Shown here: positions 28,355 through 31,268 of the stretch, one piece after another
How the letters are laid out: every line of letters begins with the position of its first letter
Numbering within the stretch: the first letter of the stretch is position 1
Assembly: GCA_016719755.1 (NCBI GenBank)
Contig: JADJYM010000015.1
Span: 248,001 to 312,000, forward strand
DNA: 64,000 nucleotides
DNA from: Novosphingobium sp.
GTDB lineage: Bacteria > Pseudomonadota > Alphaproteobacteria > Sphingomonadales > Sphingomonadaceae
Reading direction: 5' to 3'
Notes under the pieces: model-generated
The model's database searches: none
What the model was told of the DNA's origin: nothing
What the model saw: only the letters and a program-made list of their open reading frames with translations
Made by a program: the position numbers and the translations under genes

Positions 28355-29104
28355 ATGGCCGGAGAGATCCTTGACAATCGCGGGCGCGGCGAAGCGGGCT
28401 GGCACTGGCCCGCGTTCCATCCAGAATCCTACAAGTTCGCCATCGCAGCGGCAATCGCCTGCGGGGTGGCAGCCTTTTTCGCCTGGGAAACGCTCGCCTG
28501 GCCGCTTGGCGCGCTGACCCTCGGCATCCTTGCCTTCTTTCGTGATCCGCTGCGAGTAACGCCGCAAGGGGATCAGTTCATTGTCTCCCCTGCGGATGGC
28601 ATGGTCACGCTGATCCAGCAGGTTGAGCCCCCGCGCGAACTGGTGCTGGATGACGGCACGGGTACGCCGGGGCTGGAGCCTGCAGTCGTCACGCGGATTT
28701 CCATTTTCATGAGCGTGTTCGATGTCCACATCAACCGCGCGCCAATCGGCGGTACGGTTCGCCGGGTGGTCTACATCCCTGGCAAGTTTATGAACGCGGG
28801 CCTCGACAAGGCGAGCGCGGAGAATGAGCGGCAGCATTTGCTGATCGAACGCGGCGACGGATTGAAGATTGGCTTCACCCAGATCGCCGGACTGGTGGCC
28901 CAGCGCATTGTGCCCTTCGTGAAGCCAGGCGACATGCTGGCAGCCGGACAGCGCATCGGCCTGATCCGCTTCGGCAGCCGGGTTGATGTCTACCTGCCGG
29001 CTGGCACTGAACCGCGCGTGCTGATGGGCCAGAAGATCGTTGCGGGTGAAACCGTGCTGGCGGAAATCGGCCAGCAGCCGTTGATCGAGGGCATCAGCCA
29101 GTGA
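28355..29104 (+). CDS. psd: Phosphatidylserine decarboxylase proenzyme
   Basis: A 249-residue short-form Psd. The autocleavage site is Gly207-Ser208 in RFGSRVDVY, where Ser becomes the pyruvoyl group. The decarboxylation makes phosphatidylethanolamine from phosphatidylserine at the inner membrane; an N-terminal hydrophobic stretch (about 30-60) would anchor it. It sits immediately before pssA, the enzyme making its substrate, with GTGA overlap, so the two reactions are co-expressed. Confidence 0.95.
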
Positions 29105-29907
29105 CCGGTGAGGCAGACCTGCCTGCGCCCGGGCGCCTGCCGGGTGGCCTCACGCTGCGCTCGATGGTCCCCAATGCCATCACGGCAGCTGCACTCTGTG
29201 CGGGCCTGACCGGGATCCGCTTTGCCATTTCGGGGGAATGGGAAAAGGCCGTACTTGCCGTGATCCTCGCGGGAATGCTCGACGGGATCGATGGCCGCAT
29301 TGCGCGGCTGCTCAAGGCCCAGTCGCGCTTTGGTGCCGAGCTTGACAGTCTGGCCGACAATGTCTCGTTCGGGGTGGCTCCCGCCCTGATCCTCTACCTC
29401 TGGTCGCTGCAGGAACTGCCGCGGGTCGGCTGGTTCGCCGCGCTTGCCTTCGCGATTGCCTGCGCCCTGCGGCTCGCGCGGTTCAATGCGCGGATCGACA
29501 TGGCGGACGAGCCGCGCAAGGAGGCCGGGTTCCTGACCGGAGTCCCTGCGCCAGTCGGTGCGGGGCTGGTATTCTTGCCGATGTACCTGTGGTTTGTCTC
29601 GGGCCTTGAACCGCTGCGCAATCCGGTGCTGGTCAGCGGCTGGCTGGTGGCGATGGGCTTCCTGCTGATCTCCAGCGTTGCGACGCTCAGTTGGGGCAAG
29701 CTGCGTCCGCGCAAGCACGTTCGGCTTGAAATGATTGCCTTCTTCGGCCTGGTCGGCGCTGCTCTGCTGACCGAGCCGTGGTGGACGCTGGTCGGCATCT
29801 GCGTGGTCTACCTCGCCTTGTTGCCGGTTGGCGTGACCATGTACTGGCGGATCAAGCGGCAGCGCGCAGCCCGTCCCGCACAGCCGGAAGAGTCCGGCGA
29901 GCCCTGA
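29101..29907 (+). CDS. pssA: CDP-diacylglycerol--serine O-phosphatidyltransferase
   Basis: A 268-residue type II PssA-like CDP-alcohol phosphatidyltransferase. The signature D64-G-x2-A-R-x8-G-x3-D-x3-D86 is complete ([10 protein letters not shown] to ELDSLADN). Multiple transmembrane helices follow, and the SFG after the motif is typical of serine transferases. It joins serine to CDP-diacylglycerol, upstream of Psd. GTG start, coupled to psd. Its 3' end overlaps the convergent small membrane protein gene by 56 bases. Confidence 0.94.
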
Positions 29908-30112
29908 CCGGCAGCGCCAGTACCTTGCCGTCATCGCTGGCCGTCACCGTTTCGATCACGCGGTAGCGATATTCCTGAGTCTGTGGGCAGTTGGCCAGCG
30001 CGCGGCGCAGCGGGGCAACCTGCTTTAGCGCGTGGCTCAGGGAAACCGCGATGACCGTGGCCGCGAACAGGCCGCTGCAAACAAACGAGAGAGTGAGAGC
30101 AAGGCTGAGCAT
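29852..30112 (-). CDS. Small membrane protein, candidate SOS-regulated gene
   Basis: An 86-residue protein: a hydrophobic helix (about 1-27) anchors it, and a 60-residue polar tail with LKQVAPLRRAL and a basic C-terminus follows. I recognise no family. The start at 30112 is chosen because AGAGGA lies 8 bases upstream; an ATG seven codons earlier has no good ribosome site. Two LexA boxes and a DnaA box lie 50-120 bases upstream on this strand. Its 3' end overlaps pssA by 56 bases on the opposite strand. The one-helix design and the boxes resemble SOS-induced division inhibitors such as SidA, but that is inference and there is no sequence evidence for that function. Confidence 0.6.
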   Translation of the reverse strand: MLSLALTLSFVCSGLFAATVIAVSLSHALKQVAPLRRALANCPQTQEYRYRVIETVTASDDGKVLALPVRARRTLPAVRDGLRAAA

Positions 30113-30161
30113 CGTGCGAGTCCTCTTTTGCATCAGCCTGCGGACAGGCTGTGTATGACCT

Positions 30162-30170
30162 TGTGGATAA
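30162..30170 (-). promoter_or_regulatory. Consensus DnaA box
   Basis: TGTGGATAA on the plus strand, that is TTATCCACA on the minus strand, is the perfect DnaA box. One such 9-mer is expected by chance roughly once per two windows of this size, so significance rests on location beside LexA boxes. Confidence 0.45.
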
Positions 30171-30188
30171 CAATGGGATGAGCTATTC

Positions 30189-30203
30189 GTTCCCATTCCG
30201 TTC
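30189..30203. promoter_or_regulatory. LexA box (GTTC-N7-GTTC), proximal
   Basis: GTTC-CCATTCC-GTTC is an exact alphaproteobacterial LexA site (direct repeat GTTC-N7-GTTC). It lies 77 bases upstream of the leftward ATG at 30112. Confidence 0.7.
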
Positions 30204-30216
30204 CAATGCGCCTTGT

Positions 30217-30231
30217 GTTCTTTATTTGTTC
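30217..30231. promoter_or_regulatory. LexA box (GTTC-N7-GTTC), distal
   Basis: GTTC-TTTATTT-GTTC is a second exact match, 28 bases (start to start) from the first, with the AT-rich spacer favoured in known sites. Two exact copies in 43 bases are very unlikely by chance. Confidence 0.75.
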
Positions 30232-30482
30232 CATGGTGTCAAGCGAGAAAGTGCGGCGCCGTCCGGGTTGGTGCGATTGCCCGGGTGCTCAGGATCGAAT
30301 TTGCGCTGGATTCCACCAGCGACCTCGTCTAAGGGCCCCGGGCCTGCGGGCGAGGTGCCGGATACCGGCGTTTCGTGACGCGCAGGCAAATCCACATGGG
30401 AAGCACTGACATACCGGTGCCGCAGCGGGCTCTATCCGCACGGTTCCAGCTTCCCAGAGGTTAAACCGGAAAGGAAAGTCCT

Positions 30483-31268
30483 ATGGCGGCCCCTGTCGTC
30501 ACCATGCAGCAATTGATCGAGGCTGGCGCCCACTTCGGCCACCAGACCCACCGCTGGAATCCGCGGATGAAGCCGTACATTTTCGGCGCCCGCAACGGCA
30601 TCCACATTCTTGACCTGTCGCAGACCGTGCCGCTGTTCGCGCGCGCGCTCGACTTCATCGACGCCACCGTCCGCGCTGGCGGCAAGGTGCTGTTCGTCGG
30701 CACCAAGCGCCAGGCGCAGGATCCGATCGCCGAAGCGGCGCGCCGCTGCGGCCAGCACTATGTCAATCACCGCTGGCTGGGCGGCATGCTCACCAACTGG
30801 AAGACTGTCAGCACCCGCATCAAGCACATGAAGGCGCTTGAGGAAAAGCTGTCGGGCGACACCACCGGCTTGACCAAGAAGGAAGTGCTGGACCTTACCC
30901 GCAAGCGGGACAAGCTCGAAATGTCGCTTGGCGGCATCCGCGACATGAGCGGCATTCCCGACGTGATGTTCGTGATCGACGCCAACAAGGAAGAGCTGGC
31001 GATCAAGGAAGCCAACGTGCTGGGCATCCCGGTTGTGGCGATCCTCGATTCGAACGTCTCGCCCGATGGCATCGCCTTCCCGATCCCGGCGAACGACGAC
31101 GCCAGCCGCGCGATCCGCCTGTACTGCGAAGCTGTCGCTCAGGCCGCGACCAAGGGTCACCGCGAAGCTGTGGTCGATTCGGGCGTCGACATCGGCGCCA
31201 TGGAAGAAGCCCCGGTCGAGCAGGCCGTGGTCGAAGTTCCGGCCGAGGAAGCGGCGACCGAGGCCTGA
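30483..31268 (+). CDS. rpsB: 30S ribosomal protein S2
   Basis: A 261-residue RpsB with the typical [16 protein letters not shown] start and the [15 protein letters not shown] core. It joins the 30S head late in assembly and is needed for binding S1. The C-terminal 20 residues are an acidic, Ala/Glu/Val-rich tail, common in alphaproteobacteria. It opens the rpsB-tsf-pyrH-frr block. E. coli S2 represses its own mRNA through the leader; the 370-base gap upstream leaves room for similar control, though I could not identify the element. Confidence 0.98.

What the first reader, a model, noticed from the sequence alone, without database searches (positions are those of the whole stretch)
29852..30231. 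Short membrane protein behind two LexA boxes: candidate SOS-induced inhibitor
Two exact GTTC-N7-GTTC sites (30189-30203 and 30217-30231) lie 77-119 bases upstream of an 86-residue single-helix membrane protein with AGAGGA at ideal spacing. One exact box is expected about once or twice in a window this size by chance, so two within 43 bases are hard to dismiss. Caulobacter encodes small membrane division inhibitors (SidA, DidA) induced by DNA damage; this could be a sphingomonad counterpart, but sequence similarity was not seen.
Basis: partly seen in the sequence, partly recalled or inferred. Interest (0 to 1): 0.78.

Follow-up and report, generated by a model that had tools for sequence, protein, structure and literature searches.

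The report
SOS-controlled membrane protein in sphingomonads
A tiny, previously unnamed membrane protein that these soil and water bacteria appear to switch on when their DNA is damaged, probably to pause cell division, sits behind the same damage-responsive switch in nearly all relatives examined.

Summary
In detail: two exact GTTC-N7-GTTC sites lie 77-119 bases 5' of an 86-residue single-helix ORF on the minus strand between pssA and rpsB.

The arrangement is conserved. Of 80 related rpsB loci, 78 reach far enough upstream. All 78 carry a small N-terminal-helix ORF antisense at or beside the pssA end; 76 have an exact box on the gene strand within 300 nt, and the other two have one mismatch in place. 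The rest of those loci (479 kb) hold 2 boxes. Where rpsB lies up to 1.2 kb away, the box stays with the small gene. TTGAC, reading towards the small gene, stands 3-14 nt before a box in 74 of 79 loci (1 of 79 on the other strand). In the window's genome the same box pattern precedes lexA, uvrA, mmcB, rmuC, an ImuA-like gene and a repair radical-SAM gene.

The frame is under purifying selection (dN/dS 0.06-0.64), one helix face is conserved, and 72 of 79 proteins end in Ala-Ala, as does the ssrA tag. No Pfam or NCBIfam family covers it.

LexA control is well supported by sequence. Division inhibition by helix docking is my best explanation of function, untested.

The parts
29852..30112 (-). ORF, 86 aa small single-helix membrane protein (P0001)
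   Evidence: dN/dS 0.38 against its nearest relative L031 outside the last 28 codons
30044..30100 (-). transmembrane helix (residues 5-23, peak hydropathy 2.13) with family face F-x6-[AS]-x3-[IL]-x2-[ST] (F10, A17, I21, S24 here)
29855..29863 (-). C-terminal Ala-Ala-Ala; 72 of 79 family members end in AA (71 of 78 relatives plus the window)
   Evidence: own tmRNA tag ends LAA
30217..30231 (-). LexA box nearest the -35 element (GAACAAATAAAGAAC on the gene strand)
   Evidence: rank 9 of 90 genome sites with a matrix made only from six boxes of other repair genes
30189..30203 (-). second LexA box, 28 nt downstream in the gene's direction (GAACGGAATGGGAAC); 24 of 78 relatives also have two or more boxes
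   Evidence: rank 11 of 90
30237..30242 (-). TTGACA, predicted -35 element 5 nt before the box
   Evidence: TTGAC so placed in 74 of 79 loci, 1 of 79 on the other strand
30162..30170 (-). TTATCCACA, DnaA-box-like element (motif recalled) between LexA boxes and the ORF
   Evidence: exact in 19 of 79 leaders, up to one mismatch in 30 of 79; base shuffles average 0.0 and 0.4
30134..30151 (-). perfect inverted repeat CAGCCTG-TCCG-CAGGCTG in the leader
   Evidence: the leader as a whole folds only slightly better than shuffles (z -1.4)
30121..30126 (-). AGAGGA ribosome-binding site, 8 nt before the ATG
29852..29907 (.). 56-bp tail-to-tail overlap of the small ORF with pssA
   Evidence: same overlap phase in 71 of 73 overlapping loci
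29101..29907 (+). pssA, CDP-alcohol phosphatidyltransferase
   Evidence: Pfam PF01066; the name pssA is my reading of that family and the context
30483..31268 (+). rpsB, ribosomal protein S2, divergent neighbour
   Evidence: Pfam PF00318

Best explanation
A LexA-repressed gene for a small single-pass inner-membrane protein, kept in nearly all sphingomonads examined. LexA sits on a box directly behind the TTGACA -35 element and, in about a third of loci, on a second box 3' of it, keeping the gene off. RecA-triggered LexA cleavage releases it after DNA damage (from established SOS biology). The protein inserts by its N-terminal helix, and one conserved helix face docks on a specific membrane partner, most likely the late divisome (FtsW/FtsI/FtsN), delaying division. 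The basic tail probably lies in the cytoplasm, and its Ala-Ala end lets an ssrA-type protease remove it when damage is repaired. Shown by sequence: gene, boxes, promoter arrangement, selection, conserved face, Ala-Ala end. Inferred: damage induction, topology, partner, division arrest, proteolysis. My separate estimates: LexA control 0.93, division or divisome effect 0.55, Ala-Ala as degron 0.5.
For: Small N-terminal-helix ORF in 78 of 78 usable loci, exact box in 76 of 78; control strand 0 of 78. The box follows the gene, not rpsB. TTGAC placement. Own-genome regulon. dN/dS below 1 in 48 of 48 pairs compared. Conserved helix face, permutation p 0.022 over helix columns that I chose. Profile hits in 17 of 20 same-family genomes, the best hit within 5 kb of rpsB on the opposite strand in 17 of 17. 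Of 11 of those loci read, 10 have box and TTGAC; 3 of the 11 repeat earlier loci, and all 8 new ones have both. Functional analogues act through their TM helix on FtsW (PMC13396833, abstract and discussion read) or on FtsW/FtsI/FtsN (PMC4211646, passages read).
Against: No expression, binding or phenotype data. No sequence relation to a known inhibitor was found, and SidA itself was not compared. Topology is predicted only; 8 of 79 have the opposite charge bias. The Ala-Ala end lies within pssA in most loci, so part of its conservation may be pssA's. The box lies up to about 220 nt from the ATG, and the -10 element was not identified. Most of the 20 other boxed stretches read in this genome showed no recognised SOS gene.
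Confidence: 0.55

Rival explanations
1. LexA-controlled membrane toxin of the TisB/DinQ kind: it lowers membrane potential and slows growth rather than blocking the divisome.
For: SOS-controlled single-helix peptides of this kind exist in E. coli (DinQ, PMC3567139, listing and abstract start seen; TisB recalled). If the promoter is at the box, the leader is about 100 nt and holds a perfect hairpin.
Against: The proteins are longer (66-109 aa) with a strongly basic tail. One helix face keeps F, A/S, I/L and S/T, which argues for a protein partner. The leader fold is ordinary (z -1.4). I did not search for an antitoxin RNA beyond the Rfam scan of 29800-30600.
Confidence: 0.2
2. LexA-controlled modulator of another membrane process in damage (transport, lipid synthesis, phage entry), or an antisense device in which SOS transcription across the pssA 3' end lowers PssA.
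For: The gene is convergent with pssA and overlaps its end in most loci (phase).
Against: The protein itself is under purifying selection outside the last 28 codons. In four Sphingobium loci (L060, L064, L069, L079) the two ORFs do not overlap.
Confidence: 0.18
3. The boxes regulate rpsB, not the small gene.
For: The boxes lie in the divergent intergenic region about 250-295 bases from the rpsB start.
Against: Box-to-gene distance stays within about 220 nt, while the boxes lie 0.75-1.2 kb from rpsB in seven loci (L039, L048, L050, L054, L067, L071, L077). TTGAC points to the small gene in 74 of 79, to rpsB in 1 of 79.
Confidence: 0.03
4. Chance: GTTC repeats and a spurious ORF.
For: Single exact boxes occur by chance (59 for the reversed control pattern against 90 in the genome).
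Against: 102 gene-strand boxes in 24.6 kb of upstream DNA against 2 in 479 kb elsewhere in the same loci; helix ORF on the other strand in 0 of 78; dN/dS below 1 in 48 of 48 pairs.
Confidence: 0.01

Closest known systems
SidA of Caulobacter crescentus
   Same: SOS-induced very small inner-membrane protein in an alphaproteobacterium; acts on FtsW/FtsI/FtsN (PMC4211646, passages read)
   Different: SidA has 29 residues; these have 66-109, with a basic tail and Ala-Ala end. No direct sequence or synteny comparison was made.
SosA of Staphylococcus
   Same: 77-aa SOS protein with an N-terminal helix; its extreme C-terminus governs turnover (PMC6851548, passages read)
   Different: SosA's C-terminus is extracellular and is proposed to be a CtpA substrate; here the charge bias predicts a cytoplasmic tail
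YneA (Bacillus) and ChiZ (Mycobacterium)
   Same: SOS-controlled single-helix inhibitors; the YneA helix binds FtsW TM7 (PMC13396833, abstract and discussion read)
   Different: extracellular LysM domain; none matched here
DinQ and TisB of E. coli
   Same: SOS-controlled single-helix peptides
   Different: toxins with antisense RNA control (DinQ: PMC3567139 abstract start; TisB recalled); no such arrangement was seen here, but it was not searched for beyond Rfam

Membership tests
LexA (SOS) regulon of alphaproteobacteria | GTTCN7GTTC operator in the promoter region | tested here: met
   77 of 79 exact; L104 and L108 have one mismatch right behind TTGAC; adjacent TTGAC in 74 of 79
LexA (SOS) regulon of alphaproteobacteria | same operator before lexA and repair genes in the same genome | tested here: met
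   lexA, uvrA, mmcB, rmuC, radical SAM (TIGR03916), and an ImuA-like gene below the family cut-off; recA was not looked for
LexA (SOS) regulon of alphaproteobacteria | LexA binding and RecA-dependent induction | not testable with these tools
   needs EMSA, ChIP or transcripts
SOS-induced single-pass membrane division inhibitors (functional class) | small protein with one membrane helix behind a LexA box | tested here: met
SOS-induced single-pass membrane division inhibitors (functional class) | blocks septation when produced | not testable with these tools
   no phenotype data
SidA family | sequence or synteny relation to SidA | not tested
   SidA sequence not fetched and its locus not examined
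YneA/ChiZ | extracellular LysM domain | tested here: not met
   no LysM model among the matches of 79 members at E 0.1
ssrA-type C-terminal degron (Ala-Ala-COOH) | C-terminal AA kept where pssA does not constrain it | tested here: inconclusive
   4 of 4 clearly non-overlapping loci (L060, L064, L069, L079) end AA, but all are Sphingobium; L076, a Sphingobium with a doubtful pssA end, ends TA; paralogues L039 and L054 end AA, L067 AT; background 15 of 266 ORFs

The most novel reading that the evidence does not exclude
A family-wide damage checkpoint of sphingomonads in which one promoter reads both LexA (damage) and, in many Novosphingobium-like and some other lineages, DnaA (replication state). 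It makes a membrane inhibitor of reversed topology (N-out, C-in) that docks on the divisome by one helix face and is erased from its built-in Ala-Ala end by cytoplasmic ClpXP.
Probability: 0.18. Interest if true: 0.78.

Novelty: new variant of a known kind. Interest (0 to 1): 0.62.

Why it matters
How this group of environmental alphaproteobacteria holds division after DNA damage appears to be undescribed: none of the listings of my ten paper searches (one search listed 10 of 27 papers) names a sphingomonad SOS division inhibitor, but the library lacks most subscription journals and I saw titles and abstract starts, not full texts. A gene kept in nearly all relatives examined, with an operator more conserved than the protein, is a strong candidate. 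It would add an independent case of small SOS membrane inhibitors, perhaps with opposite topology and its own clearance tag, and gives defined residues (F10, A/S17, I/L21, S/T24 of the helix) to test against FtsW.

Tried and rejected
Family searches gave nothing: no Pfam hit for the window protein; over 79 members only scattered weak NCBIfam and Pfam matches, at most 2 members each; PDB profile best E 0.11. A search with the single window protein matched only 50 of 298 same-family genomes at E 0.1, most of them weakly, and missed two of the same genus (G111, G288): the protein diverges fast, and the family shows only through synteny or a profile. Rfam gave no credible match for 29800-30600. 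A sigma-70 consensus scan found no full promoter, so the -10 element is not identified. The leader is not unusually structured.

The idea that the box belongs to rpsB was rejected. Presence outside the family was not supported: of 39 rpsB upstream regions (38 from other families plus G040, a member of the same family; L143 only 1071 bases) none has a pssA match (tblastn with the window's protein, which could miss distant PssA) and none a correctly oriented box; L138 has one in the other orientation. Profile hits outside the family are weak (5 of 60 genomes, E 2e-5 to 8e-3); the best, in G411, was not followed up. Within the family 3 of 20 genomes (G040, G050, G440) gave no profile hit; only G040's rpsB region was read (no box, no pssA). 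SidA and DidA sequences were not compared.

Full report
Observation. The neighbours are pssA (29101-29907 +) and rpsB (30483-31268 +). The genome is sphingomonad: the nearest record in the collection is an uncultured Novosphingobium with RpsB 98% identical.

Relatives. L049 and L088 have 172 and 95 bases upstream and were dropped. The other 78, bearing 15 genus names in their titles, all have a small ORF antisense at or beside the pssA end, with a hydrophobic helix at its N-terminus. My first pass missed five (L041, L043, L061, L076, L082), probably because the pssA end was misplaced; one search found them. Five loci (L039, L054, L067, L070, L077) offered two candidate ORFs, and I took the one next to the box, a small selection bias. 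As a control blind to the box, one filter (ATG start, 50-130 aa, N-terminal helix) passes 77 of 78 regions on the gene strand, 0 of 78 on the other strand and 1 of 39 rpsB upstream regions lacking this arrangement; L102, with a GTG start, fails it. Lengths are 66-109 aa.

Boxes. Exact boxes on the gene strand lie within about 300 nt of 76 of the 78 genes; the opposite orientation occurs in 2. The remaining 479 kb of the same loci hold 2 boxes in all. The two exceptions, L104 and L108, have AAACN7GAAC directly behind their TTGAC. 24 of 78 have two or more boxes. In seven loci the box-gene pair lies 0.75-1.2 kb from rpsB and remains together. TTGAC lies 3-6 or 14 nt 5' of a box in 74 of 79; the five without it (L065, L081, L082, L094, L097) are all titled Sphingopyxis. 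Of 11 further loci found by profile, 10 have box and TTGAC, in one (L182) with a gap of 22 nt. L174 (no exact box), L178 and L181 repeat L108, L110 and L099, so eight are new, and all eight have both.

LexA. The window's genome has lexA (DNA-binding domain at C15:448728-448922, minus strand) with a box just upstream. Boxes also precede uvrA, mmcB, rmuC, the TIGR03916 radical-SAM gene and an ImuA-like gene; the last scored below its family cut-off. A matrix built only from these six ranks the two window boxes 9th (tied) and 11th of the genome's 90 exact sites. The genome has 90 sites against 59 for the reversed pattern, so many single sites are chance. I read 20 stretches of 4 kb around sites that scored well and tested nine genes there: six repair genes, a Dam-like methylase, an S24 repressor and a glyoxalase. 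The other stretches showed no gene that I recognised as SOS. recA was not looked for.

Protein. All 48 pairs above 55% identity have dN/dS between 0.06 and 0.64 outside the last 28 codons. Sequence is otherwise very divergent (mean column identity 18%). The helix keeps F, then A/S at +7, I/L at +11 and S/T at +14. The 100-degree moment of conservation has permutation p 0.022 over columns that I chose. Net charge is 0 before the helix in 76 of 79, and the tail averages +6.4. 59 of 79 are more positive after the helix and 8 less, so N-out/C-in is predicted. The ending Ala-Ala occurs in 71 of 78 relatives and the window; exceptions are L040, L072, L085 (VA), L057, L068, L074 and L076. The own tmRNA tag is ANDNEALALAA. 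Because most genes overlap pssA, nearly always in one phase (71 of 73), part of this may be imposed by pssA. The four clearly non-overlapping loci all end AA, three different codon pairs being used, against 15 of 266 background ORFs, but all four are Sphingobium. L095 also appears as non-overlapping, but its pssA end is doubtful; so is that of L076, which ends TA.

DnaA-like element. TTATCCACA occurs exactly in 19 of 79 leaders and within one mismatch in 30 of 79, against 1 and 2 of 79 for the reverse orientation; base shuffles give 0.0 and 0.4. Named loci with the exact site are mostly Novosphingobium, with three Sphingomonas and one Pontixanthobacter. DnaA as a second regulator is a lead only.

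Range. Upstream regions from 38 genomes outside f1 and from G040 inside it show neither a pssA match nor a correctly oriented box. A profile search of 80 genomes of the order hit 17 of 20 in f1, always near rpsB, and 5 of 60 outside, weakly. A search with the window protein alone hit 50 of 298 f1 genomes at E 0.1, which shows how far the sequence diverges.

Comparison. Small SOS-controlled membrane inhibitors are a known functional class: SidA (PMC4211646, passages read), SosA (PMC6851548, passages read) and YneA/ChiZ (PMC13396833, abstract, outline and discussion read), with FtsW proposed as a common target. YneA is cleared by YlbL and CtpA (PMC6051672, abstract and outline read). This family fits the class by regulation and size, lacks a LysM match, and differs in predicted topology and tail. 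Function is inferred, not shown.

Noticed in passing
window 30340-30482: A block just upstream of rpsB looks conserved across the relatives (its chance translations recur in many loci), probably the rpsB leader RNA; no credible Rfam match.
   Followed up: partly
G000:C7:40008-40022 (L111): A box identical to the window's 30217 box precedes a Dam-like adenine methyltransferase gene; possibly prophage.
   Followed up: partly
G000:C10:7406-7420 (L127): A box lies about 270 bases from a gene with an S24 peptidase domain (CI/LexA-like repressor).
   Followed up: no
L039 and L054 (391 bases before rpsB), L067 (342 bases before rpsB): A second small single-helix ORF, paralogue-like, closer to rpsB and without an exact LexA box within 250 nt.
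   Followed up: partly
window 30162-30170: TTATCCACA, a DnaA-box-like element, in the leaders of about a third of the family allowing one mismatch.
   Followed up: partly
G000:C14:17374-17407 and C15:13719-13752: Two contigs share the same pair of oppositely oriented boxes (GTTCTACTCTTGTTC and GTTCGACTCCCGTTC), suggesting a duplicated segment.
   Followed up: no
L084: A contig titled 'Actinobacteria bacterium 21-64-8' carries the sphingomonad arrangement with RpsB 83% identical; the title is probably a misassignment.
   Followed up: no
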